A DNA stretch of 64,000 bases. Source: Nitrospira sp. (lineage in GTDB: Bacteria; Nitrospirota; Nitrospiria; Nitrospirales; Nitrospiraceae). Of the stretch, positions 4,602 to 24,762 are shown in pieces. The notes under the pieces were generated by a model that was given only the letters and a program-made list of their open reading frames with translations, searched no databases and had not been told where the DNA came from. The translations under genes were made by a program, and so were the position numbers. The stretch is taken from contig JAVYIN010000005.1 of the NCBI GenBank assembly GCA_035968315.1, positions 310,001 through 374,000 on the forward strand, written 5' to 3'. Each line of letters opens with the position of its first letter. Position 1 is the first letter of the stretch.

Positions 4602-4729
4602 CTCACCCTGCCGATTCTTCGATCTCTGTCGCGTGCGTCCCTTCCCATCGAGCCGCGCGATCGCACACTTCTTGCGTCCGCTTGTGCAGCGGATTGCTCC
4701 CGAAGCATCAGGATCGAACAGGGAGACCC

Positions 4730-7700
4730 ATGGATACAGTGCCTTCATTTGTTCCTTTGAGTGCAGAGCTGAACGAGCCGATACGCGCCGAGTTGTTTGG
4801 CGCCGAGCGCCTTGAACAGCATGCGGAGAGTCTGGCGGTGGCGCAGGTTGTGACGGACGACTCCCGGCGGGGCGGACTCCTCATGCCCCGCGTCCTGGAG
4901 AATGGACGGGTGTTGGTGGATTCCTACCGGACGATCGCCCGCGCGATTCGTGATGAGAAGGCCATTACCCCTGCCGCGGAGTGGCTGGTCGATAATTTCC
5001 ACATTGTGGATGAACAGCTTCGCGAGATTGTCGATGATTTGCCCCCTGGGTATTACCGGCAATTGCCGAAGCTGGCATCCGGGCATTTGCAGCAGTATCC
5101 ACGGGTATTCGGGGTCGCCTGGGCATTCGTCGCGCACACCGACAGCCGGTTCGATCCCGACATGCTGCGCCGGTTTGTTGTGGCCTATCAGCGTGTGCAA
5201 CCGCTGACGATGGGGGAATTATGGGCCGTGGCGATTTCGCTGCGTGTCGTGCTCGTCGAAAACCTTCGCCGGCTGGCTGAACGGATGGTGCAGAGCCGCG
5301 CCGCCAGGCTGGAAGCCGACGAACTGGCAGACAGCCTGCTGGGGAGCGGGGCGGTGGCCCCTGAGTCTCCGGCCACGGCGTTGCGCCGGTTTGAACACAG
5401 GCCATTGGCCACGGCGTTTGCCGTGCAGCTGGTCCAGCGGCTTCGCGACCTGGATCCCAAGGTGCGTCCTGTGCTGCGGTGGCTGGACGAACGGCTGGCC
5501 GCGCAGGGGACGACCGCCGACGACATGGTGCATGCCGAGCATCAGCAACAGGCGGCCATGAGTGTGACCGTGCGCAATGTCATTACCAGCATGCGGCTGA
5601 CCTCGGCTTTCGACTGGGCGGAGTTTGTCGAGCACGTCAGCCTGGTGGATGCGATGTTGCGGCGTGCTTCCGGTTATGCCGAGATGGATTTTGTCACCCG
5701 AGACACCTACCGGCATGGCGTTGAAGATCTCTCGCGCGGCACGGGGCTTTCTGAAATCGACGTGGCCACGCGTGTGGTGCAGCGCGCTCTGCAGGCGGGG
5801 GCTGAGGCTCATGCGTCGGCACAGCCGGAGCGGGAACGGCAGCGGGATCCCGGCTATTACCTCATCTCACAAGGCCGCCGGGCCTTTGAACGCGAACTGG
5901 GCTACCGGGAGTCCTGGAAGCAGCGGCTGGTGCGGTGGTATGTCCAGGCGTCGGCGCCTGGCTATTTGGGATCGCTGGCCGTTGTGACCGCCATGGTTCT
6001 GGCCTTGCCGCTGTGGTACGCGGATCACACGGGTGTGGGCATCGCGGGTCTCGCCTTGCTCGGTCTTCTGGCCCTCGTCCCTGCATCGGATGTCGCGATG
6101 GCGCTGATCAATCGGACCGTGATGACGATTCTCGGTCCGCGGCCTTTGCCCCGCATGGCGTTGCGCAACGGCATCCCGAAAGAGTTGCGGACGATCGTCG
6201 TGGTGCCCACGCTGCTGACGGATCCACAGGGCATTGAGGAGCACGTCGAGCGGTTGGAAGTGCACTATCTGGCGAATGCGGATGAGGACTTGCGCTTCGT
6301 GCTGCTTTCTGACTGGCGAGATGCGCCGAGTGAATGCCTGCCGGGCGATGCCGAGCTGCTGGCGAGCGCGGGCGAGGGGATCGCGCGTCTGAACCGGCGG
6401 TATGGCCCCGCGGCCGGAGGCGGATCGCGTTTTGTGCTGTTGCATCGCCGTCGCCTCTGGAACGAGTCCGAGCATCTCTGGATGGGATGGGAACGGAAGC
6501 GCGGCAAGCTGCACGAGTTGAATCAATTGCTGCGCGGTTCGGCAAGCACGACGTTCATATCCGTCTGCGGGCATCCTCCCGAAGTCATTCCATCGGTCCG
6601 GTTTGTCATCACGCTGGATGCCGATACACGGCTGCCGCGAGGAGCTGCGCACCGCTTGATCGGCACTATGGCCCATCCGCTGAACCGGCCCCGGTTCGAC
6701 CCGCGCGCCGGTCGTGTGCTCGATGGCTATGGAGTCGTGCAGCCGCGCATTACGCCGTCGCTGCCGGGCAGCGGCGAGGGGTCCTATTTTCAACAAACGT
6801 TTTCCGGCCCCAGCGGGGTCGATCCCTACGCCTCGGCCGTGTCCGATGTCTACCAGGATTTGTTTCGGGAAGGATCGTACACCGGCAAGGGCATTTATGA
6901 GATCGACGCGTTCGAGGCGGCGCTGGCCGGGAAGGTGCCGGATAATACGATGCTCAGTCACGATCTCTTTGAAGGGCTGTTCGCGCGCGCGGCCCTGGCG
7001 ACCGACATCGAACTGTTCGAAGCCTTTCCCGCCCATTATGAAGCGGCGGCCGCCAGACAGCATCGCTGGGCGCGCGGCGATTGGCAGTTGCTGCCCTGGC
7101 TGTTCGGTCGCGGACACACCGGTTCAATGCCTGCTCGACCGGTCACGATTCCCGCGATCGGCCGCTGGAAGATGGCCGATAATCTTCGCCGTACGTTGTC
7201 GGCTCCCACGGCCTGTCTGACATTGATCGCCGGGTGGCTGCTGCCGAAGGGATCGGCCTGGGTGTGGTCCGGATGTATTCTGAGCGCCATCGCGATTCCC
7301 TCGCTCGTGTCCGTTGTACTCGGGCTCTACCCACGCCGGCCCGGTGTGGCGCTGCGTACTCATTTGCGAGGGGTTGGCGCCGACCTCAAGTTGGCCGCGG
7401 CGCAAATCGGCTTGACGTCCACCTTCCTCGCGCATCAGGCCTGGCTCATGATGGATGCGATTGTTCGGACGCTCGGACGGCTTGCGATCACGCACCGGCC
7501 GATGCTGGAATGGGTGACAGCGGCGCAAGCCGAGCAAGCGTACACGTGCAACTTGACCGGGATGTACCGCCGCATGGCCGGCAGTGTGGCGCTGGCCGTC
7601 CTGGCAGGCGGCGGAGTGGCGGTGTGGGGAGGGGAGGGTTCCTGGGCCGCTGCGGCTCCGTTTCTCCTGCTCTGGGTGGCGGCTCCTGCCGTGGCGCGGT

Positions 7701-10700
7701 GGGTCAGTCTGCCGCCTCCACAGATCGGGGCCGAGCCGGTGTCCCCGGCGGATGCCAGAGCCCTGCGATTGATTGCGCGCCGGACCTGGCGGTTCTTCGA
7801 GACGTTCGTCTCCTCGGAGGACCATGCACTGCCCCCCGATAACTTTCAGGAAGATCCGAAACCCGTCGTCGCGCATCGCACATCTCCGACGAATATCGGG
7901 CTCTATCTGCTCTCCACCCTGGCCGCCCGTGATCTGGGCTGGCTGGGGACGGTCGAGGCGGCCGAACGGCTGGACGCCACGCTGGCCACCATGCACCGTC
8001 TCGAGCGGTGCCACGGACATTTTTACAACTGGTACGACACGCGTACGCTGTGCCCGCTGGATCCCAAGTATGTGTCCTCGGTCGATAGCGGGAATCTCGC
8101 GGGACATTTGGTGGCCGTGAGCAATGGATGCCGCGAACTGATTCAGTCCTCCTCTATCGACGGCAATCTGTTGGCCGGCATCGATGATGCCATCCAGTTA
8201 TTACGCGAGGCACTCGCAGAGATACCGGATCAGCGACAGACACACACGGTGACTCGCAAACAGTTGAGCCAGGCGGTCGATCTGGTGGCGGCCGCGTTAC
8301 GGTCGCGGCCGGGCGATGCCGCAGGGTGGACGAGCCGGATTGGCCACCTGCATACCGTCTCCCGTACGGTGGCCGATATGGCGCAGGCCCTCTCGCAGGA
8401 GCGGGGAGAAGGGCCGGACGGGGAGTTGCGCATCTGGGCCGAGGCGATCCGCGTCTGCGTCGAGAGCCATGTTCGGGACGCGGCGCTGGTGCTTCCCTGG
8501 ATCCGCTTCAGTGACAAAGACCTTGCGGCTCTGTTCGATGGACCTTCTGGGCCGTCCCCGGAGTGGGCGGTCATTGCGCCGCACTTCCATCCCGTTCCCA
8601 CGCTGGCCAGCGCGCCGGAACGGTGTGAGGCCGCGCTCCGTGCGCTCGACTCCCTGCGGAGCGAACGGCTCAGCACTCCCGCGCCGCACCGGGTCAGTTT
8701 GGGGCGGATTGCGGCCTTGGCTGACGCGCTGCGGCAATCGGCTGCCGATGTCACGCTGTTGACCCGGCGTCTCGCGGCAATGGCGGACGACGCGGAACGT
8801 CTGGTGCGCGCCATGGATTTCGCCTTCTTGTTCGATCCGACGCGCAAGCTGCTTTCCATCGGCTATCGTGTGGCGGACAACAGTTTGGATCCCAGCTGCT
8901 ACGACTTATTGGCGTCGGAGGCCAGGCTGGCGAGCTTTCTGGCTATCGCGAAGGGGGATGTGCCGGCCTCGCACTGGTTTCACTTGGGCCGGGCGTTGAC
9001 GCCGGTGGGGACGGGTTCCGCGCTGGTGTCCTGGTCTGGTTCGATCTTCGAATATCTGATGCCCGCGCTGGTGATGCGGTGCCCGCCTGGCAGCTTGCTG
9101 AGCCGGACCTATGACCTGATTGTGCATCGGCAGATTCAGTATGGGGCGGAACGCGGCGTGCCCTGGGGGGTGTCGGAGTCGGCCTACAATGCCAGAGATC
9201 TGGATTTGACCTACCAGTATTCCAGCTTCGGGGTGCCGGGTCTTGGCCTCAAGCGCGGTCTGATCGACGATGTCGTCGTGGCCCCTTATGCGACGGCGCT
9301 CGCGGCCATGATCGATCCCGCCGCGGCGGTGCAAGGATTCGCTCGACTGGCCGAGGCCGGCGGACGGGGCGCATATGGCTATTATGAGGCGCTGGATTAT
9401 ACCGGCACACGCGTTCCTGACGGGGCATCGGTGACGGTCATCCAGGCCTATATGTCGCATCATCAGGGCATGACGCTCATTGCCATCGCAAATGTGCTGA
9501 ACGGCGGGGCGATGCGAAGCCGCTTTCACGCCGAGCCGATGGTCCGGGCGGCGGAGCTCCTGCTCCAGGAACGCACGCCGCGCGATGTGCCGGTGACGAG
9601 GCCGCGAGCGGACGAGGTATCTGCCGTGGCGCAGGTCCGCGATCTCATTCCGCCGGTCGTGCGGCGATTGACGTCGCCGCATGAGGAGACACCGCGCACC
9701 CATCTGCTCTCGAATGGGCAGTATGCCGTGATGGTGACGGCGGCAGGCTCGGGCTATAGCCGATGGCGGGATATGGCTGTGACGCGCTGGCGGGAGGATG
9801 CGACGCGGGATAATTGGGGCGCCTATGTATTTCTCCGCGACATGACGACGGGGGGTGTCTGGTCCGCGGGGTATCAGCCCAGCGGCGTCGAGCCTGACGA
9901 CTATGAGGTGACGTTTTGCGAAGAACGCGCGGAGATTATCCGGCGGGATGGCAAGTGGAGCACCACGCTCGAGGTGGTGGTGTCATCAGAGGATGATGCC
10001 GAAGTCCGGCGCCTTTCGATCAGCAATCTGGGCGCCAGCGCCCGCGATCTGCAAGTCACCTCCTATGCCGAACTGGCTCTGGCTCCGCAGGCGGCCGATG
10101 TCGCCCATCCGGCTTTTGGCAATCTCTTTGTGCAGACGGAATTCGTGCAGGAGGTGGGGGCATTGCTCGCCACTCGGCGCAGACGGTCAGACGAGGAACC
10201 GGCGGTCTGGCTCGCTCATGTGGTGGTGGTCGAAGGGGAGACGGTGGGGGCCTTGGAATATGAAACGGATCGTGCCCGATTTTTGGGCCGCGGGCATCAT
10301 GTCCGTACGGCCGTCTCGATGATGGACGGCCGGCCGCTGTCGAATACAGCCGGGTCCGTCCTCGATCCTATGATGAGTCTGCGCCGCACGGTGCGTGTGC
10401 CAGCTGGAGGGACGGTGCATGTCGTGTTTTCAACTATTGCCGGGTCCACTCGCGAGCAGGTGCTGGACCTGGCGGATAAGTATTGCGATGCGAGGGTATT
10501 TGAGCGGGCCGTGTCGCTGGCCTGGACGCAGGCGCACGTCCAACTGCATCATCTCGGCATTGAGACCGGTGAAGCGCAGCTCTTTCAGCGATTGGCGAAT
10601 GCGGTGTTATATGCCGATGCCTCCCTGCGGCCCTCTGCAGAGACGCTGGCCGACAGTACGCTGGATCGTACGGCACTCTGGGCCCATGGCATCTCCGGTG

Positions 10701-13531
10701 ATTTGCCCATCGTCTTAGCCTCGGTTGATAAGGCGGAGGATGTCGATCTCGTCCGGCAATTGCTTCGGGCCCATGAATATTGGCGCATGAGACAGCTGGC
10801 GGCCGATGTGGTCATCCTGAACGAGAAGGCGTCGTCATACGAGCAGGGCCTGCAAGGCTCGCTGGAGGCGCTGGTGAAAGGCAGCCGATTGCGCCTCTGT
10901 CCTGATACCGGAGCGCCACGGGGCGGCATTTATCTCCTGCGGACCGATCTGCTCTCTGCGCAAGACCGGCTGCTCTTGCAGCAAGCGGCCCGGGTTGTGC
11001 TGTTGAGCCGGCGGGGCTCGTTGGCGGAGCAGGTGACCCGATTACAGCGCCGGCAGAGCCCCCCGCCACCCACGGCGCCAATCCGGCGTGTTCAGAAACG
11101 GCTGGATGTGCCCTTGCCTGACCGGAACCTCGAATTTTTTAACGGACTGGGCGGTTTTGCCGATGAGGGCCGTGAGTATGTCACGATGCTTGGTGAAGGG
11201 CTGAGGACGCCGCGCCCGTGGGTCAACGTGATTGCGAACCCATCGTTCGGCTTTCTGGTTTCGGAATCTGGCTCGGGGTTCACCTGGTCGTTGAATAGCC
11301 ACGAGAATCAGCTGACGCCCTGGTCGAATGATCCGGTAACCGATCTATCCGGAGAGGCGTTCTATATCCGCGATGACGAGTCACAGGAGGTATGGAGTCC
11401 CACGGCCCTTCCGATTCGCGATGACCCGGCACCCTATGTCGCCTGTCACGGACAGGGCTATAGCCGGTTCCATCATGGGTCGCATGGCATTCTGGCCGAA
11501 CTGCTGCAATGTGTGCCGCCTGAAGACCCGATCAAGATTTCGAGACTGACGCTGCAGAATCTGTCCGGCCGTTCCCGGCGCTTGTCCATTACGGCCTATG
11601 CGGAGTGGGTGTTGGGGAGTTCCCGCAGCGACTCCGCGCCGTATCTCGTGACGGAGATGGATCCCGAGACCGGTGCGCTGTTTGCGCGGAATGCCTGGAG
11701 CGGTGAATTCGGCGGCCGCATCGCGTTTTCCGATCTCGCAGGGAAGCAGACGTCCTGGACCGGCGATCGTGCGGAATTCCTTGGCCGCAATGGCACTCCC
11801 GAGCGCCCGCTGGCGCTTGCGCTTGGAGGAACATTGTCTGGCCGTGTCGGCGCCGGCCTCGATCCCTGTGCCGCGCTCCAATTGACGATTGAGCTGGCGG
11901 CGGACGAACGGGCTGAGATCGTCTGGTTTCTTGGCCAGACGGAGGGACGGGAGCAGTCGCGTCTCTTGGTCGAGCGGTATCGCGGTATGGATATGAACGC
12001 GCTCCTGGGCGACGTGATCCGTCGGTGGGATGACGTGTTGGGTGCGGTGCAGGTCCGCACGCCTGAGCGGGCCACGGATGTCATGTTGAACCGCTGGGCC
12101 CTCTATCAGACGCTGGTGTGCCGCGTCTGGGCGCGGGCGGCGTTTTATCAGTTGAGCGGGGCCTACGGGTTTCGTGACCAGCTTCAGGATGTCATGGCCC
12201 TGAGTGTGGCGGCGCGCGATGTGACCCGTGAGCATCTGCTGCGGGCCGCCGCCCGGCAATTCGTCGAGGGCGATGTGCAGCACTGGTGGCATCCTCCGTC
12301 AGGTCGTGGTGTGCGGACCCGTATTTCCGACGACCTGCTCTGGTTGCCGTATGCGGTCGTTCAATTTCTTGAGGTCACGGGCGACATGACCGTGCTCGAT
12401 GAGCTGGTGCCTTTTTTGGAAGGCGAGAGGTTGGCGGAGGGGCAACAGGAATCCTATTTTCAGCCAAGGGTGTCCGAGACGCGCGCCACGCTCTTTGAAC
12501 ATTGTGCGCGGGCCTTGGACCGGAGTCTGGCTGTTGGCCGTCACGGCCTCCCGCTTATGGGCGCCGGAGACTGGAATGACGGGATGAATCGTGTCGGCCA
12601 GGAGGGCAGGGGGGAAAGTGTCTGGCTCGGCTGGTTCCTGCATACGGTGCTCTGGGAGTTTGCCAAAGTGGCCGCCTCCCGAGGCGAGCATGTGCGGGCA
12701 GAAGCCTGGCGGCTTCATGTGAGCGCGTTGAAGGCCGCGATCGAGCGGGAGGGGTGGGACGGAGAATGGTACCGGCGCGCGTATTGTGACGATGGGACGC
12801 CCCTTGGATCTGCGGCGGGCCAGGAATGCCGGATCGATTCGATCGCGCAGTCTTGGGGTGTGATCAGCGGCGCAGCGGACCCGGCCCGCGGTGCGCGCGC
12901 CATGGCGGCGGTGGATCAGTACCTGGTCAACCGGCGAGACGGGCTGATCAGGTTATTGACGCCACCTTTTGACCAGACGGCAATGGATCCCGGATATATC
13001 AAAGGCTATCTCCCGGGCATTCGCGAAAACGGAGGCCAATACACGCATGCGGCCGTCTGGACGGTGCTGGCATTCGTGGCACTGGGTGATGGAGATAAGG
13101 CCGGCGAATTGTTCCGCCTGTTAAATCCTGTTCAACGCATTGCCTCGCGCGCAAACGTGCAACGGTACAAAGTCGAGCCCTATGTGGTCGCCGGGGATGT
13201 GTATGCCGAGCCTCCGCACGTCGGGCGGGGAGGATGGACCTGGTACAGCGGGGCGGCCGGCTGGTTCTATCGGGCCGGTGTGGAAGGAATGCTTGGCTTT
13301 CGCTTACGGGGCGCGACTCTCTGCATCGATCCGTGTATTCCACATAACTGGCCCGGGTATTCCATTCAGTTCCGGTATCATTCAGCGGTCTATGACATCT
13401 CGGTCGAAAATCCGCACCATGTGAGCCGTGGCGTGACGCTGACAGAGTTGGACGGGCAGCCGGTGACTGGCCGGGAAGGGATTCCGCTTGTTTTCGACGG
13501 CGCGCATCGCATTCGGATCGTGTTGGGGTGA
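4730..13531 (+). CDS. ndvB: cyclic beta-1,2-glucan synthase-like protein (NdvB/Cgs family, GT84-GH94)
   Basis: 2933 residues, about the usual length of the family. These inner-membrane enzymes build, elongate and cyclise periplasmic beta-1,2-glucans, which serve in osmoadaptation. Order seen: N-terminal cytoplasmic region; membrane helices near 410-465; GT84 transferase with DADT near 630 and the HRWARGDW acceptor motif near 778; more helices near 825-870 and 950-995; a glycoamylase-like domain (DNFQEDPKP near 1037 to SHHQGMTL near 1570); then two GH94 carbohydrate-binding/phosphorylase repeats from about 1600 and 2137. The second repeat contains GDWNDGM (2613-2619), whose Asp is catalytic in GH94 phosphorylases and helps set glucan length. 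Start 4730 has AGGGAGA. No exporter (NdvA) or glycosyl-phosphate-modifying gene is nearby. Confidence 0.93.
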   Translation: MDTVPSFVPLSAELNEPIRAELFGAERLEQHAESLAVAQVVTDDSRRGGLLMPRVLENGRVLVDSYRTIARAIRDEKAITPAAEWLVDNFHIVDEQLREIVDDLPPGYYRQLPKLASGHLQQYPRVFGVAWAFVAHTDSRFDPDMLRRFVVAYQRVQPLTMGELWAVAISLRVVLVENLRRLAERMVQSRAARLEADELADSLLGSGAVAPESPATALRRFEHRPLATAFAVQLVQRLRDLDPKVRPVLRWLDERLAAQGTTADDMVHAEHQQQAAMSVTVRNVITSMRLTSAFDWAEFVEHVSLVDAMLRRASGYAEMDFVTRDTYRHGVEDLSRGTGLSEIDVATRVVQRALQAGAEAHASAQPERERQRDPGYYLISQGRRAFERELGYRESWKQRLVRWYVQASAPGYLGSLAVVTAMVLALPLWYADHTGVGIAGLALLGLLALVPASDVAMALINRTVMTILGPRPLPRMALRNGIPKELRTIVVVPTLLTDPQGIEEHVERLEVHYLANADEDLRFVLLSDWRDAPSECLPGDAELLASAGEGIARLNRRYGPAAGGGSRFVLLHRRRLWNESEHLWMGWERKRGKLHELNQLLRGSASTTFISVCGHPPEVIPSVRFVITLDADTRLPRGAAHRLIGTMAHPLNRPRFDPRAGRVLDGYGVVQPRITPSLPGSGEGSYFQQTFSGPSGVDPYASAVSDVYQDLFREGSYTGKGIYEIDAFEAALAGKVPDNTMLSHDLFEGLFARAALATDIELFEAFPAHYEAAAARQHRWARGDWQLLPWLFGRGHTGSMPARPVTIPAIGRWKMADNLRRTLSAPTACLTLIAGWLLPKGSAWVWSGCILSAIAIPSLVSVVLGLYPRRPGVALRTHLRGVGADLKLAAAQIGLTSTFLAHQAWLMMDAIVRTLGRLAITHRPMLEWVTAAQAEQAYTCNLTGMYRRMAGSVALAVLAGGGVAVWGGEGSWAAAAPFLLLWVAAPAVARWVSLPPPQIGAEPVSPADARALRLIARRTWRFFETFVSSEDHALPPDNFQEDPKPVVAHRTSPTNIGLYLLSTLAARDLGWLGTVEAAERLDATLATMHRLERCHGHFYNWYDTRTLCPLDPKYVSSVDSGNLAGHLVAVSNGCRELIQSSSIDGNLLAGIDDAIQLLREALAEIPDQRQTHTVTRKQLSQAVDLVAAALRSRPGDAAGWTSRIGHLHTVSRTVADMAQALSQERGEGPDGELRIWAEAIRVCVESHVRDAALVLPWIRFSDKDLAALFDGPSGPSPEWAVIAPHFHPVPTLASAPERCEAALRALDSLRSERLSTPAPHRVSLGRIAALADALRQSAADVTLLTRRLAAMADDAERLVRAMDFAFLFDPTRKLLSIGYRVADNSLDPSCYDLLASEARLASFLAIAKGDVPASHWFHLGRALTPVGTGSALVSWSGSIFEYLMPALVMRCPPGSLLSRTYDLIVHRQIQYGAERGVPWGVSESAYNARDLDLTYQYSSFGVPGLGLKRGLIDDVVVAPYATALAAMIDPAAAVQGFARLAEAGGRGAYGYYEALDYTGTRVPDGASVTVIQAYMSHHQGMTLIAIANVLNGGAMRSRFHAEPMVRAAELLLQERTPRDVPVTRPRADEVSAVAQVRDLIPPVVRRLTSPHEETPRTHLLSNGQYAVMVTAAGSGYSRWRDMAVTRWREDATRDNWGAYVFLRDMTTGGVWSAGYQPSGVEPDDYEVTFCEERAEIIRRDGKWSTTLEVVVSSEDDAEVRRLSISNLGASARDLQVTSYAELALAPQAADVAHPAFGNLFVQTEFVQEVGALLATRRRRSDEEPAVWLAHVVVVEGETVGALEYETDRARFLGRGHHVRTAVSMMDGRPLSNTAGSVLDPMMSLRRTVRVPAGGTVHVVFSTIAGSTREQVLDLADKYCDARVFERAVSLAWTQAHVQLHHLGIETGEAQLFQRLANAVLYADASLRPSAETLADSTLDRTALWAHGISGDLPIVLASVDKAEDVDLVRQLLRAHEYWRMRQLAADVVILNEKASSYEQGLQGSLEALVKGSRLRLCPDTGAPRGGIYLLRTDLLSAQDRLLLQQAARVVLLSRRGSLAEQVTRLQRRQSPPPPTAPIRRVQKRLDVPLPDRNLEFFNGLGGFADEGREYVTMLGEGLRTPRPWVNVIANPSFGFLVSESGSGFTWSLNSHENQLTPWSNDPVTDLSGEAFYIRDDESQEVWSPTALPIRDDPAPYVACHGQGYSRFHHGSHGILAELLQCVPPEDPIKISRLTLQNLSGRSRRLSITAYAEWVLGSSRSDSAPYLVTEMDPETGALFARNAWSGEFGGRIAFSDLAGKQTSWTGDRAEFLGRNGTPERPLALALGGTLSGRVGAGLDPCAALQLTIELAADERAEIVWFLGQTEGREQSRLLVERYRGMDMNALLGDVIRRWDDVLGAVQVRTPERATDVMLNRWALYQTLVCRVWARAAFYQLSGAYGFRDQLQDVMALSVAARDVTREHLLRAAARQFVEGDVQHWWHPPSGRGVRTRISDDLLWLPYAVVQFLEVTGDMTVLDELVPFLEGERLAEGQQESYFQPRVSETRATLFEHCARALDRSLAVGRHGLPLMGAGDWNDGMNRVGQEGRGESVWLGWFLHTVLWEFAKVAASRGEHVRAEAWRLHVSALKAAIEREGWDGEWYRRAYCDDGTPLGSAAGQECRIDSIAQSWGVISGAADPARGARAMAAVDQYLVNRRDGLIRLLTPPFDQTAMDPGYIKGYLPGIRENGGQYTHAAVWTVLAFVALGDGDKAGELFRLLNPVQRIASRANVQRYKVEPYVVAGDVYAEPPHVGRGGWTWYSGAAGWFYRAGVEGMLGFRLRGATLCIDPCIPHNWPGYSIQFRYHSAVYDISVENPHHVSRGVTLTELDGQPVTGREGIPLVFDGAHRIRIVLG

Positions 13532-19233: not shown

Positions 19234-19980
19234 CTAGAAAGCCGCGGAGCCCCGATGGGCAGGCTTCTGCAGGGAAGGGTGCGCCGCTTCCGCCAGCTGG
19301 CGCCGCTGTTCGTCCGATCGGAGGCGAATTTTGAAGATCACTCGCCGGCTCTTGCCGCGGTCAACGCCTGTGGCCGGATCGTAAATGAGGTCTTGCTTCC
19401 CGCGTCCGCTGGCCGATGTCATACGCTGGAAGCAGGCGGCGACCGACGGAGCGTCACGCTCGATCACGTCGAGTCCTTTCACCATCACCCGGAAAGACCG
19501 CTCCTGGCTCAGCCGTAAATTCACGGTGTCCTGGCCAAGGTCATCGGTGTGTCCTTCGATCACCACCGAATCGACGTGGCCGCGGAGCGAACCGCACAGT
19601 GCGGCGGCGTACCGGGGCATCATTTCCTGAAGAAAGCGTTCGGCGCTCTTGGTGAGCGTGCTCTGGCCGAATTCGAAGTTGAGCAGATCGTCGGGTATCA
19701 CGATGTGCATCAGCAGCGGGTCGTGCGGATCGGCGTCTACGGACAATCCGAAGGGCTGCAAATGCCTGTGCAGGGCACTGCGGACATCCGGCTCCAGGAC
19801 TGTGGCACGGGCCGGTGTCGTGACCGTTTCCGCTCGCGGGCCATCAGCATCCGATGGCGGCGCGAGGGAGGCCGCCAGGAGCAGGATGAAGATGATGGCA
19901 AGCGAGGTCATCAAGTCCATGAGGCCGTTAGTCGTGGTGTGCGAGACGACGGACTTGTGCGAAGTTTCGTTAAACGGCAT
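19234..19980 (-). CDS. ZorB/MotB-like protein with OmpA peptidoglycan-binding domain
   Basis: 248 residues. One N-terminal membrane helix (GLMDLMTSLAIIFILLLAA, about 19-37) carries an Asp (D22) in the position of the proton-conducting Asp of MotB. A periplasmic OmpA-like domain spans about 105-225, with NFEFGQSTL and VVIEGHTDDLGQDTVNLRL. An AGGAG precedes the ATG at 19980. The gene follows the MotA-like gene by 48 bases on the same strand. Together they match the stator half (ZorA/ZorB) of Zorya anti-phage systems or a TolQ/R-, MotA/B-like energy-transducing pair. No ZorC, ZorD or ZorE gene follows. Confidence 0.8.
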   Translation of the reverse strand: MPFNETSHKSVVSHTTTNGLMDLMTSLAIIFILLLAASLAPPSDADGPRAETVTTPARATVLEPDVRSALHRHLQPFGLSVDADPHDPLLMHIVIPDDLLNFEFGQSTLTKSAERFLQEMMPRYAAALCGSLRGHVDSVVIEGHTDDLGQDTVNLRLSQERSFRVMVKGLDVIERDAPSVAACFQRMTSASGRGKQDLIYDPATGVDRGKSRRVIFKIRLRSDEQRRQLAEAAHPSLQKPAHRGSAAF

Positions 19981-20028
19981 CTCGACGCTCCTGGCGGCCG
20001 ATGCGCGCATCGGCCTGATGATCGAGTC

Positions 20029-21246
20029 TCATGGGCGAAGCCCTCGTCCGGCGGCGTGGATTTTTCTGAACCATCCTGGCTGTGGAGTGGGAGACGGAGC
20101 GTGGGTGAGCTCGCGCTCGCTGTTGAGCCGTCCCGTCAGTTGATCGATCAGGTGGTTCACCTGGGTCGTGGAGGCATAGTGCTGCTGTTGCTGCGTATTC
20201 AAAATGTCGGTGAGCCGTTCGACGGTGCCGGTGAGGCCTTGTATCAGCGGAGCTAAGTTGTCTGACAGGATCTGCACAGGATCGGACTCGCGCGAGGGCT
20301 GCGTCGAGAGCAGGTGCGTGCGAAGGTCCTGGGTCAGCGTGTGCATCGCGTCCGTCATGGTCCGGATCGGCTGCGTCAGAGCGTCCGTTGGTAGGGACGA
20401 TTCCGCGGAGTGTCGGACGAATTGGTTCGCGTGCGGTTCTCCCTGGGAGAGGCCGTGCAATCCTTCCAACAGTTGTTCCAGTGTTTTTCGCGGGAAGAGT
20501 TCATCGAGGTGGTGCATACAGGTCTGGTGAGCCGCGAGCAGCCGGAACATCGCCGGTTTTTCAATGAAGGTGAACAGGTTGGCGCACAGCAGCCCGATAA
20601 TGGAGGTCAGAAATTTTCCAGCCAGGCCATTGATCAATCCTTGAATGCCGACGATGGTGTGTCCGTCCGTATGGAGCTGGAGCTTGCTGAGCCCGATCAG
20701 GAGGGCGACAAAGGTCAAGAGCAGGCCGAAACCGGTCAGGAGCGCGGGAACCTGGCCATACCACGCGAGGTTGATGCGGCTGCTGAAGAGTGCGTCCAGC
20801 GCGAAGAGGTCCTGCGCGGCGCGGGAACTGAATATGCGCGGTTCGACATACCAGGGTACCTGTTCGGTGACCAGGGTTTGCCGATACCGGTTCCAGGCTT
20901 GCGCGAGGAGGGGCTCTTGCCGAAAGGCGGTATCGACTCGTTGAAGGTCTTGCCCATCACGATGATTGAGCTCGGCAACCGGCCCGTTGGCGCTCATCGT
21001 TCGGCGATGGTGCGGGAAGCGGGACGTGGCTTGGCGCTGGCGTTCTTGCACCAAGGGCGCCAGCGTCTCACCGAGCCGTTGAAATGGCTGCCGGGCCTGT
21101 GCGGTGTGGCGGGAGAGCTGGATGATGTGCCAGGCAAAAAAGATGAGGAGGCCGATCGAGCCGAGCCAGCTGAGCAGCGGCGCGTGCAAGGTTCCGAGCG
21201 GGGCGACGTCTTGGGTGAGCCGGTCGAAGAATGAGGAGGTGTTCAT
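20029..21246 (-). CDS. ZorA/MotA-like proton-channel subunit
   Basis: 405 residues. Predicted helices near 24-44 (LLSWLGSIGLLIFFAWHII), 165-187 (VPALLTGFGLLLTFVALLIGL) and 207-230 (LTSIIGLLCANLFTFI); a conserved-looking INGLAGKF between the last two resembles the MotA/TolQ/ExbB channel core. A long, probably coiled C-terminal tail follows (residues 240-405, Gln/Leu-rich). The tail distinguishes ZorA from plain MotA. ATG 21246 is inside a longer frame; no strong ribosome site is seen, but the N-terminus fits. It should assemble with the ZorB-like product into an inner-membrane stator. Anti-phage function is inferred, not shown. Confidence 0.75.
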   Translation of the reverse strand: MNTSSFFDRLTQDVAPLGTLHAPLLSWLGSIGLLIFFAWHIIQLSRHTAQARQPFQRLGETLAPLVQERQRQATSRFPHHRRTMSANGPVAELNHRDGQDLQRVDTAFRQEPLLAQAWNRYRQTLVTEQVPWYVEPRIFSSRAAQDLFALDALFSSRINLAWYGQVPALLTGFGLLLTFVALLIGLSKLQLHTDGHTIVGIQGLINGLAGKFLTSIIGLLCANLFTFIEKPAMFRLLAAHQTCMHHLDELFPRKTLEQLLEGLHGLSQGEPHANQFVRHSAESSLPTDALTQPIRTMTDAMHTLTQDLRTHLLSTQPSRESDPVQILSDNLAPLIQGLTGTVERLTDILNTQQQQHYASTTQVNHLIDQLTGRLNSERELTHAPSPTPQPGWFRKIHAAGRGLRP

Positions 21247-21498
21247 TCCCGCTGTGATGTCCAACTTTCGTGCCACCGATGGCGCGCTCAAATAGTACGC
21301 CGAATGGGCTATGTGTCTTCAGCGCCGATTCTCTGCTTGTGTGGGCGGGAAGAATGTGCCGGGCACTGGGCACCGAATGCCAGGGGAAAAGGCGGTGGGA
21401 GTGGCCTGCATCTATTGGCGCATGGATTACGGGATGGTACTGGCAAAGAGGATGCGAGGCCAGAGGCTGGCTGATGTAGAGGGAAGAGGAAAAGGGGT

Positions 21499-21542: not shown

Positions 21543-22238
21543 TTACTTGGGCGGCGCGAATGCGGCGGCTTCTTGGCCTTCGACGACGGGTTTCAGGTAG
21601 ATTTCGACCCGCCGGTTCTGGCTGCGGCCCTCCGGTGTCGTGTTGGCGGCTTTCGGCTGAGATTCTCCACGGCCCTCCGTCAGGACGCGGGTTTGATGGA
21701 CGCCGGCGCTCAACAGCTGTGCGGCGACGGCCTGCGCCCGTTGTTCCGAGAGCTGTTGGTTAAAGGCGGCGGTTCCCTGATCGTCGGTGTGGCCGATGAC
21801 ATGGACGGCGGTGCTGTCATACTGCGTGACCACACCGCCAAGTTTTGCCAAGACGTCGTGAAAGGAGGATTTTATCTCTGTGCTGCCCATGGCGAAGGAG
21901 GCTTCGCTTTTGACGTCAACCTGGATGCTGTTGTCAGGAAGCTTCTTGAGCTCGACGTCGTGGGATTGGAGTTCCTTGGCAAGCTTCTCCTCGATGGCCT
22001 TCTTCTGTTTGTCCATGTAAAGACCGACCCCACCGCCGGCCAGCACTCCCACCGCCGCGCCAATCGCCGCTCCACGCCCCCGATTCTTCTTGTCGATGGC
22101 GGCTCCTGCCCCTGCGCCGACTACCGCGCCGATCGCCGCCCCGATCTTCGTCTTCATATAGGGGTCCTCTTCCGCGCAGCCGGTTAGGATCAGGCCGCTT
22201 GATACACTGAGTGCAATGATTCGATGGACGTTCGTCAT
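21543..22238 (-). CDS. OmpA-family outer-membrane lipoprotein with glycine zipper
   Basis: 231 residues. Signal peptide with lipobox LTGC (Cys 21). A glycine-zipper segment (IGAAIGAVVGAGAGAAID and AAIGAAVGVLAGGG, about 30-75) resembles YMGG/SlyB-type membrane-inserting repeats. A C-terminal OmpA domain (about 105-225) has VIGHTDDQG and RGESQPKAANTTPEG...NRRVEIYL, and binds peptidoglycan. Similar to E. coli YiaD. ATG 22238 has GAGAGGAT directly upstream; the longer frame is not supported. It probably anchors the outer membrane to the cell wall. It is on the same strand as the ZorAB-like pair but separated from it by a likely terminator. Confidence 0.88.
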   Translation of the reverse strand: MTNVHRIIALSVSSGLILTGCAEEDPYMKTKIGAAIGAVVGAGAGAAIDKKNRGRGAAIGAAVGVLAGGGVGLYMDKQKKAIEEKLAKELQSHDVELKKLPDNSIQVDVKSEASFAMGSTEIKSSFHDVLAKLGGVVTQYDSTAVHVIGHTDDQGTAAFNQQLSEQRAQAVAAQLLSAGVHQTRVLTEGRGESQPKAANTTPEGRSQNRRVEIYLKPVVEGQEAAAFAPPK

Positions 22239-22387
22239 ATCCTCTCTTCTCCTCTTGGCTTGTGCGAGACTGACTGGATCGTCGGTCTCGCGGGTAGAAT
22301 AATACACTCGGCTATGCGGAGCTAGTCGTAGAGGCCTCTCACTGTCAACTTTCGTCATAGGAGGGTTATATTGGGAGGGTCCATGCG

Positions 22388-22424
22388 TCAAGGCCCGGGT
22401 TCCTTGGAGGAGTCCGGGCCTTGA
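22388..22424. other. hairpin between PilB-like and OmpA-lipoprotein genes
   Basis: Perfect 11-base arms (TCAAGGCCCGG/CCGGGCCTTGA) with a 15-base loop lie 31 bases after the PilB-like stop. There is no T-tract on either strand. It may be a weak terminator or an mRNA 3'-end stabiliser. Confidence 0.45.
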
Positions 22425-22455: not shown

Positions 22456-24762
22456 TTACTTGATCGCCACCGCCTTGACTTCTTTAAAGGTGGTGTGACC
22501 CTGTAGAACTTTCTGAATCCCGTCTTGCATCAAGGTCGTCATCCCTTCTTCGAGGGCCGCTCGCAACATATCTTCGGTCCGGGCCTTTTCTTGGATCATC
22601 CGTTTCATCTTATCCGATCCGAGCAGGAGCTCATGCAACGCAACCCGCCCTTTGAATCCTGATCGGTTACAGGTCTCGCATCCTTTTCCTCGGGTCAAGC
22701 GGAAGGTATTGTCCTGTTTGATGCCGAGTTTGTCCCAATATTCTGGCCCATAGCCTTGCCGGATTTCCTCATACTCTACCGGACTGCCCACATATTGTTC
22801 CTTGCAGTCTTTGCAGACCCGGCGGGCCAACCGTTGCGCGAGGACGCCGAGCATGGCATCGGCAAAACTGAAGGGATCGCAGCCCATGTCCAGAAGACGG
22901 GTGACCGTTTCCACCGCGCTATTGGTGTGCAAGGTGCTGAGCACCAAGTGGCCGGTCAGCGAAGCCTCAATGCCGGTATCGGCGGTTTCCTTGTCTCGCA
23001 TTTCACCGACCATGATGACGTCCGGGTCGGCGCGGAGAAAGGCGCGCATCGCGGCCGCGAACGTGAAGCCGATTTTGGGCTGGACTTGGACCTGGCGCAG
23101 TCCGTATTGCGTGATTTCGACGGGGTCTTCCGCGGTCCAAATTTTAATGTCCGGAGTATTGATGTTGCCCAGCACGGAATGCAGCGTGGTCGTTTTCCCT
23201 GATCCGGTCGGTCCGACACACAAAATGATGCCGTAGGGTTTTGTGGAAATGTCCTTGATGCCTTTGAGGTTGCGATCCGAGAACCCCATCTTGTCGAGCG
23301 GCAGAGGTTCGCTGGCCGCCAGGATACGCATGACCACGTCTTCGTTGAAGCCCGCGGTGGGCAGCGTGGCGACGCGGAGTTCGATCTCCTTGGTTTCATT
23401 CAGCTTGAATTTGATCTTGCCGTCCTGCGGTTTCCGCCGCTCGGCAATATCCAAACTCGCCATAATTTTGAGGCGGGAGACAATGGCGCGCCGGTAGCTT
23501 TGCGGAATCTTCATGTATTCGAAACAGTCGCCGTCGACCCGGAACCTGACCAGTGTTTCGCGCTTTTCTCCATAGGGTTCGATGTGAATATCCGAAGCGT
23601 TCTGGCGATAGGCGTCGGCGATGATTTGGTTGGCCAGACGCACGATCGCACTGTCATTTTCATCCAGGCCGCTTCCCCCAGACGCATCCTCCATCGCCTC
23701 AGCCTGGGCCTCGGTGACAAGTTCGCCGAGAATGTCGGAGACATTTTCGTCAAGTTTGCGGCCCCCCCCTGTATCGCTCTGCCCTGTGGCGGAGGCGAGG
23801 AATTGGGCGATGTCGCGGCGCAGGCTGACGGCAAAGCGGATATTGAGCCCGGGGAACGTGCGTTTGATGTCCTGGACGCGGTCCAGATCGCCAGGGTCAT
23901 CGGTCAGAATTTCAATCGCCGTGCGATCCCGCTTGAGCGGCATCCAGTGGTTCTTTTTCAAGTAATCGACGTTCAGATTTTTGAGCAGCTCAATATCGAC
24001 GAGGGTGCGTTCGCTGTATTCGATGTAGGGACATTTGAAAAATTGGGCGAGCGATTTCCCCAGGTCGAGTTTGGGGACCTTGTACTTTTCGATCAGAATG
24101 CTTTCGAGGTCACTCATCCCTTTGCGGGACTCCGCGAGGGCGTTCTCAAGATCATTTTGGGCGATGCGGTTATTTGTGACGAGGAGGTCGAACTTGGTCG
24201 GATTCTTTTTGGTGACTTTTCGGAGGTTGAAAAAGGCGATGCCCAGGGCTTTGGCGATTTCGGCGACCGACTCCTCATCCTTCCTGGTAAAGCGGCTGCC
24301 GCTTTTCTTGTTCAGGAGCTGGAGGACGCCCATCAGATATTTATTGTCGGCAACGATCGGATAGGTCAGGACCTGTTTGGTCTTAAACCCGGTGCTTTTG
24401 TCATAGGAGGTGTCATGAAGCAGGGCTGGATGGATGCTTTGGAGCTCGGCCAGATTATAGGCATCGGCGATATTGACGGGGCGCAGGTATTTGGCGCAAA
24501 AACCGGCGAGGCTTTGCTCCGAGATGGGAATACGGACTTCTTGGACACCATCGACTTGCAGGACTTTGGAAAAGATTTCTTTTTTTTCTGAGTCGAAGGC
24601 AAAGAGTGTCAGGTCTTCGGCGTCGAATAAGCCAAGAATCTCTTTATGCAGGTCGAGCAGAATGTGATCGAGGTCGGTGGCCGCGTTGATTTGAGTCGTA
24701 ATCCGTTTGACGTGCTCGGCATGCTCGGCTTTTGGCTGCAGTTCTTGAAGGTTTGGCGTCAT
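22456..24762 (-). CDS. GspE/PilB-family ATPase with N-terminal GAF domain
   Basis: 768 residues. A GAF-like sensor domain (about 15-170) is followed by a T2SSE/MshE N-terminal domain (about 195-330) and the secretion ATPase core with Walker A GPTGSGKTTT (near 513), an Asp-rich EDPVE, Walker B PDVIMVGEMRD and His box GHLVLSTLHTN. Two Cys pairs (VCKDC near 649, CETC near 694) form the zinc element of the family. It would power assembly of a type IV pilus or type II secretion pseudopilus. The GAF domain suggests ligand or redox control of the motor. No other pilus gene is in the window. It lies 219 bases downstream of proS on the same strand. Confidence 0.9.
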   Translation of the reverse strand: MTPNLQELQPKAEHAEHVKRITTQINAATDLDHILLDLHKEILGLFDAEDLTLFAFDSEKKEIFSKVLQVDGVQEVRIPISEQSLAGFCAKYLRPVNIADAYNLAELQSIHPALLHDTSYDKSTGFKTKQVLTYPIVADNKYLMGVLQLLNKKSGSRFTRKDEESVAEIAKALGIAFFNLRKVTKKNPTKFDLLVTNNRIAQNDLENALAESRKGMSDLESILIEKYKVPKLDLGKSLAQFFKCPYIEYSERTLVDIELLKNLNVDYLKKNHWMPLKRDRTAIEILTDDPGDLDRVQDIKRTFPGLNIRFAVSLRRDIAQFLASATGQSDTGGGRKLDENVSDILGELVTEAQAEAMEDASGGSGLDENDSAIVRLANQIIADAYRQNASDIHIEPYGEKRETLVRFRVDGDCFEYMKIPQSYRRAIVSRLKIMASLDIAERRKPQDGKIKFKLNETKEIELRVATLPTAGFNEDVVMRILAASEPLPLDKMGFSDRNLKGIKDISTKPYGIILCVGPTGSGKTTTLHSVLGNINTPDIKIWTAEDPVEITQYGLRQVQVQPKIGFTFAAAMRAFLRADPDVIMVGEMRDKETADTGIEASLTGHLVLSTLHTNSAVETVTRLLDMGCDPFSFADAMLGVLAQRLARRVCKDCKEQYVGSPVEYEEIRQGYGPEYWDKLGIKQDNTFRLTRGKGCETCNRSGFKGRVALHELLLGSDKMKRMIQEKARTEDMLRAALEEGMTTLMQDGIQKVLQGHTTFKEVKAVAIK

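What the first reader, a model, noticed from the sequence alone, without database searches (positions are those of the whole stretch)
19234..21246. ZorAB-like stator without Zorya effectors
A MotA-like protein with a long C-terminal tail and a MotB/OmpA-like partner with a channel Asp form a two-gene unit resembling ZorA/ZorB. ZorC, ZorD or ZorE, needed in known Zorya systems, are absent on both sides. It may be a minimal or new defence or energy-transducing system, perhaps working with a neighbouring gene such as the OmpA lipoprotein.
Basis: partly seen in the sequence, partly recalled or inferred. Interest (0 to 1): 0.6.

Follow-up and report, generated by a model that had tools for sequence, protein, structure and literature searches.

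The report
Orphan Zorya motor of nitrite oxidisers
Nitrite-oxidising Nitrospirales bacteria keep, as a resident chromosomal gene pair, a shortened version of the ion-driven motor of the Zorya anti-phage system without any of its DNA-attacking partners, which suggests that a defence engine was kept for another, still unknown, task.

Summary
In detail: window 20029-21246(-) and 19234-19980(-) encode a ZorA-like and a ZorB-like protein, with no ZorC, ZorD or ZorE beside them. Best profile, sequence and fold matches are ZorA/ZorB, not MotAB, TolQR or ExbBD. But the pair is not a loose defence module. It is a syntenic, purifying-selected pair, almost always single-copy, in 121 of 196 genomes sampled from its order (Nitrospirales), one clade (100/99), always two genes. 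ZorC occurs in only 3 of the 196, exactly those that also have a long ZorA; two (G144, G149) carry both. The "long tail" is short for ZorA: 148-172 residues after the core, against 381-595 in ZorAs of full systems. The nearest long relatives belong to ZorABCD loci, and rooting on TolQ/ExbB nests the short clade inside long ZorA. Best reading: a 5:2 peptidoglycan-anchored ion motor that lost ZorC/ZorD and most of the ZorA tail and became a resident pair, probably doing a non-Zorya envelope or energy-transducing job; its load is unknown. Stand-alone defence is unlikely (published: ZorAB alone does not protect) but not excluded. The OmpA lipoprotein is not a conserved partner. New variant of a known kind.

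The parts
20029..21246 (-). orphan ZorA-like protein (405 aa from ATG 21246; 420 aa if TTG 21291): membrane core plus short helical tail (about 150 aa after the core)
   Evidence: PADLOC ZorA1 6.9e-25; A1 alignment; AlphaFold2 model, best PDB fold matches ZorA Z 17.3 against about 10 for TolQ/ExbB; T193 and S230 (420-aa numbering) align with ZorA T147 and S184 of 8qyd
19234..19980 (-). orphan ZorB-like protein (248 aa from ATG 19980 behind AGGAG; 258 aa if ATG 20010): one TM helix with channel Asp and a periplasmic OmpA-like peptidoglycan-binding domain
   Evidence: PADLOC ZorB1 7.1e-35; Pfam OmpA 4.6e-9; A2 alignment with invariant D32 and TD...N..LS..R motif; fold Z 15.3 to ZorB 8vvn and 8vvi
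21543..22391 (-). neighbour, NOT part of the unit: YiaD-type Gly-zipper/OmpA lipoprotein (282-aa ORF; start probably downstream)
   Evidence: NCBIfam YiaD_Gzip_OmpA 1.3e-65, above cut-off; a relative is near the pair only in the window and L034
16981..18255 (+). neighbour, NOT part of the unit: DEAD-box RNA helicase, opposite strand
   Evidence: Pfam DEAD 2.1e-53
22456..24762 (-). neighbour, NOT part of the unit: PilB/GspE-type ATPase with GAF and MshEN domains
   Evidence: Pfam T2SSE 4.4e-123

Best explanation
The two genes encode a ZorA5B2-type ion-driven motor unit: five A subunits around two B helices whose Asp is the ion carrier, with the B OmpA-like domains anchored on peptidoglycan. The unit descends from a Zorya type I ancestor that lost ZorC and ZorD and more than half of the ZorA tail, and has since been inherited as a resident chromosomal pair in the order Nitrospirales. 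Ion flow would turn the A ring and its short cytoplasmic stub against the wall-anchored B. I think it most likely that this serves a normal envelope-linked task (passing force, or a wall-state signal, to a cytoplasmic or membrane partner encoded elsewhere) and not complete Zorya immunity. Shown here: homology, fold, conserved channel residues, short tail, absence of ZorC, clade, gene order, purifying selection. Inferred: 5:2 assembly, ion flow, peptidoglycan binding, loss of the defence role, and the load, which is unknown.
For: ZorA/ZorB are the best matches by profile, PDB sequence and fold (A Z 17.3 to 8qyh against 10.8 for TolQ; B Z 15.3). Channel residues invariant. Short pair in 121 of 196 order genomes, nearly always one copy (122 matches, one of them, G123, is a long ZorA). 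Phylum-wide search: short form only in this order; the four matches in other families of the phylum are long. ZorC in only 3 of 196, all with a long ZorA. B follows A in the loci read except at contig ends. No third conserved gene; neighbours differ between clades and are constant within them. Tails 148-172 against 381-595 aa; rooted on TolQ/ExbB the short clade is nested; short clade 100/99 on A+B. Sister long forms are ABCD loci. dN/dS 0.07-0.25; tail 0.18 in one pair. Literature: ZorAB not sufficient (PMC8565338); deleting the ZorA extension, ZorAB alone, or Asp-to-Asn gives no defence (PMC11890865).
Against: No experiment and no partner found; a trans-acting nuclease cannot be excluded. 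The pair is missing from many genera of the order, so it is not essential. The rooting uses a distant two-sequence outgroup and about 155 columns; whether L051 or L154-157 is the closest long relative is unresolved (56/32). Some defence systems are also stably inherited. A laboratory deletion of the whole tail is not the same as a natural shorter tail.
Confidence: 0.6

Rival explanations
1. Minimal or split Zorya defence: the pair senses envelope damage at phage entry and triggers a trans-encoded effector, or acts by itself (for instance by depolarising the membrane).
For: Clear kinship with ZorABCD systems; all motor and wall-anchoring features kept. The own genome has SNF2-helicase and HNH relatives elsewhere, though these are generic domains.
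Against: ZorC absent from 193 of 196 order genomes; stable chromosomal position with ordinary neighbours; coexistence with complete Zorya in G144 and G149; published ZorAB alone does not defend and the ZorA extension is required (PMC8565338, PMC11890865).
Confidence: 0.2
2. Ancestral state: the short stand-alone pair is the older form, and Zorya arose when a lineage gained the long tail and ZorC/ZorD.
For: The unrooted tree alone allows it; short and long forms are each one side of a branch.
Against: With TolQ/ExbB as outgroup the root falls among canonical long ZorA and the short clade is nested; the short form is confined almost wholly to one order.
Confidence: 0.1
3. A second stator or a Tol/Ton-like unit: the pair powers flagella, gliding or outer-membrane energy transfer as MotAB, TolQR or ExbBD do.
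For: Same superfamily fold; the genome has flagellar FliM/FliN relatives.
Against: No Pfam MotA_ExbB match, while the genome has three other proteins that do match, including a 256-aa MotA-like one; not beside flagellar or Tol genes in the loci read; ZorA fold score far above TolQ/ExbB.
Confidence: 0.1

Closest known systems
Zorya type I (ZorA, ZorB, ZorC, ZorD)
   Same: ZorA and ZorB core sequence, fold, gene order A-B, channel Asp and Ser/Thr, OmpA-like peptidoglycan-binding domain; nearest relatives of A and B come from ABCD loci of the same phylum
   Different: no ZorC or ZorD next to the pair, and no ZorC in the genome; ZorA tail about 150 instead of 380-600 aa; resident vertical pair instead of patchy defence locus
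Zorya type II (ZorA, ZorB, ZorE)
   Same: motor pair; smaller ZorA
   Different: profile scores lower than for type I; the N-terminal part before the channel helices is long as in type I; only a 48-position HNH-type match to ZorE elsewhere in the genome
MotAB, TolQR, ExbBD and 'generic ion transporter' pairs (PMC12505986)
   Same: ion-motor superfamily of 5:2 complexes; OmpA-like wall anchor as in MotB
   Different: not matched by Pfam MotA_ExbB; fold Z about 10 against 17 for ZorA; not linked to flagellar, Tol or Ton genes in the loci read

Membership tests
ZorA/ZorB protein families | best match to ZorA and ZorB profiles and structures over other ion-motor families | tested here: met
   (NCBIfam ZorA_2 below its cut-off: 65.7 of 100 bits; for B, NCBIfam OmpA-lipoprotein models score slightly better than ZorB2/ZorB1, while PADLOC ZorB is far better)
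ZorA/ZorB protein families | conserved channel Asp in B and Ser/Thr in A | tested here: met
   B D32 invariant; A T193 and S230 invariant in short and long forms
ZorA/ZorB protein families | 5:2 ion-conducting complex bound to peptidoglycan | not testable with these tools
   fold and residues compatible; no complex was modelled
Zorya defence system (types I, II, III) | effector genes ZorC+ZorD, ZorE or ZorF+ZorG in the locus | tested here: not met
   no third gene shared by the short-pair loci; flanking window genes are of other families. ZorF/ZorG profiles were not searched genome-wide
Zorya type I defence system | ZorC anywhere in the genome | tested here: not met
   own genome none; 3 of 196 order genomes, all with a long ZorA
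Zorya defence system (type I) | long ZorA cytoplasmic tail required for defence (PMC11890865) | tested here: not met
   tail 148-172 aa against 381-595 aa in effector-linked ZorA
Zorya defence system | protects against phage | not tested
   needs an experiment
MotAB / TolQR / ExbBD | match to Pfam MotA_ExbB (PF01618) | tested here: not met
MotAB / TolQR / ExbBD | linkage to flagellar, Tol or Ton genes | tested here: not met
   mixed neighbours such as dimethyladenosine transferase-like, PdxA-like, PilB-like and prolyl-tRNA synthetase-like genes (named by eye from sequence, except PilB)

The most novel reading that the evidence does not exclude
A Zorya motor was domesticated: an order of nitrite oxidisers turned the defence engine into a resident two-gene rotary machine with a new cytoplasmic load, the reverse of the usual story in which a housekeeping motor is recruited for defence.
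Probability: 0.45. Interest if true: 0.75.

Novelty: new variant of a known kind. Interest (0 to 1): 0.55.

Why it matters
It gives a natural ZorAB motor uncoupled from its nucleases, normally in single copy and, in two genomes, side by side with complete Zorya. That makes two open questions testable: what ZorAB does by itself, and what the length of the ZorA tail is for. It also warns annotation pipelines: profile hits to ZorA/ZorB alone do not mean a defence system, since they would mark a large part of Nitrospirales genomes.

Tried and rejected
Viral contigs: no relative of the A protein. Plasmids: only one weak match to the A protein, so no sign of the pair on plasmids. OmpA lipoprotein as partner: rejected by neighbourhood. 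ZorD in trans: one SNF2 hit in the own genome over the helicase core only (positions 440-877 of 1071), and the same profile rings in 11 of 14 control genomes, so not evidence. ZorE in trans: 25.6 bits over 48 positions, HNH-type part only. Promoter and terminator scans: nothing above shuffles. The first rooted tree used a wrong-strand outgroup sequence and two very long branches; repeated without them. NCBIfam ZorA_2 in 14 control genomes: none. PHROGs: nothing useful. Literature search for orphan ZorAB or Zorya in Nitrospira: no paper found that treats it among the open-licence papers held; subscription papers are not held.

Full report
WHAT IS THERE. On the minus strand the window holds two adjacent genes: A (20029-21246, 405 aa from ATG; the open frame reaches back to a TTG at 21291) and B (19234-19980, 248 aa from an ATG behind AGGAG; an earlier ATG at 20010 gives 258 aa). 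A matches ZorA1 profiles (6.9e-25) and B ZorB1 profiles (7.1e-35) of PADLOC. NCBIfam gives ZorA for A, below the curated cut-offs (ZorA_2 65.7 of 100 bits); for B it gives OmpA-type lipoprotein and ZorB models, all far below cut-off. Pfam MotA_ExbB does not match A at all, although the genome has three other proteins that do match it. In the PDB the best sequence matches are ZorA of E. coli and Shewanella and ZorB.

ANATOMY. A aligns best with ZorA structures (Z 17.3, 17.2, 17.2, 16.6; the first three rows have large rmsd because part of the tail is included; 8qyy 3.7 A over 223 residues, 8vvn 2.5 A over 202), then TolQ/ExbB at about 10. B aligns with ZorB (8vvn Z 15.3, 8vvi 15.3, 8qyd 14.3), with MotS, PA0833 and PomB close behind, so for B the PADLOC profile is the better discriminator. 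T193 and S230 of A align with T147 and S184 of 8qyd ZorA (counted from the alignment) and are invariant in short and long forms. D32 of B is invariant in 15 relatives, as is an OmpA-type TD...N..LS..R motif. That these residues carry ions and bind peptidoglycan is taken from published Zorya work (PMC11890865: Asp D24/D21 with a ring of Ser/Thr; peptidoglycan binding by ZorB), not shown here.

THE TAIL IS SHORT. After the membrane core the short A proteins have 148-172 residues, predicted as helices of about 26 and 58 residues in the window protein, at low confidence. ZorA proteins of the long group have 381-595. Published deletion of the whole extension abolishes defence, and ZorAB alone does not protect (PMC11890865; PMC8565338).

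DISTRIBUTION. A search of 196 genomes of the order found A in 122. One of these, G123, is a long form in a ZorABCD locus, leaving 121 with the short form (one, G026, lies near a contig end and is a long branch). A phylum-wide search found the short form only in this order; four genomes of other families carry long forms of 636-703 aa. Named records in the public genome collection are nearly all Nitrospira and other Nitrospirales, including Candidatus Nitrospira defluvii; one high-GC contig filed as Rokuibacteriota also carries a pair, with an even shorter tail. B follows A in the loci read except where a contig ends; in the closest relative (L034) B is split by an in-frame stop.

NO EFFECTORS. 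ZorC is found in 3 of the 196 genomes: G123, G144 and G149, exactly those with a long ZorA. G144 and G149 also have the short pair, elsewhere in the genome. This is an internal positive control: the method does find Zorya where it exists. In the own genome ZorC is absent, and ZorD and ZorE profiles find only generic helicase and HNH-type parts. ZorF and ZorG were not searched genome-wide.

NEIGHBOURS. Over 41 loci (of which L051 and L070-L072 are complete Zorya systems) only A and B are conserved; other genes are shared within clades and differ between them. The OmpA lipoprotein next door has a relative only in L034. A fixed place within a clade and ordinary neighbours is the pattern of a vertically inherited resident pair and not of a defence island.

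HISTORY. On A core plus B the short clade has support 100/99; the closest long sequences are L051 and L154-L157, and this joint group is separated from canonical type I at 100/100. L051, L154 and L155 lie in loci with ZorC and ZorD; L156 and L157 are cut by stretch ends and no ZorC was recognised in the fragments. Rooted on the genome's own TolQ/ExbB-type proteins the short clade (95/98) is nested among long ZorA. The simplest history is loss of ZorC, ZorD and most of the tail. The outgroup is distant, so this is likely, not proven. dN/dS of 0.07-0.25 for A and B, and 0.18 for the tail in one pair, shows that both proteins and the short tail are under purifying selection.

HOW IT MOST LIKELY WORKS. 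An ion-driven A5B2 unit, wall-anchored by B, turning the A ring with a short helical stub (inferred from Zorya structures). With neither effectors nor a full tail, Zorya-type DNA attack is unlikely; a resident envelope-linked role with a partner elsewhere is my first choice (0.6). Defence in a split or minimal form (0.2), the ancestral-state reading (0.1) and a second stator or Tol/Ton role (0.1) remain. The load is not identified.

LIMITS. No complex was modelled, no partner was found, no phenotype is known. The literature held is open-licence only; no paper found there treats this pair.

Noticed in passing
L051 2981-10418, L154 769-7850, L155 9661-17295: Divergent ZorABCD loci in this phylum whose ZorC (446-523 aa) is recognised only weakly (E about 1e-12 to 1e-18) while ZorD is clear: a distinct subgroup of Zorya type I.
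   Followed up: partly
L034 10228-10974: In the closest relative (G174, a metagenome bin) the B gene is interrupted by an in-frame stop with no indel against the window; a real pseudogene or a sequencing error.
   Followed up: partly
L130 6982-8639: A 71% GC contig filed as Candidatus Rokuibacteriota carries the short pair with a tail shorter still, and no ZorC/ZorD-like gene directly after it by eye: horizontal transfer or binning error.
   Followed up: partly
window 4682-13531: A 2949-aa ORF on the plus strand that looks like a giant cyclic beta-glucan synthase-type protein (by eye).
   Followed up: no
G144:C48, G144:C114, G149:C96 (L070-L072): Complete Zorya type I systems in Nitrospirales genomes that also keep the orphan pair; G144 has two of them.
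   Followed up: yes
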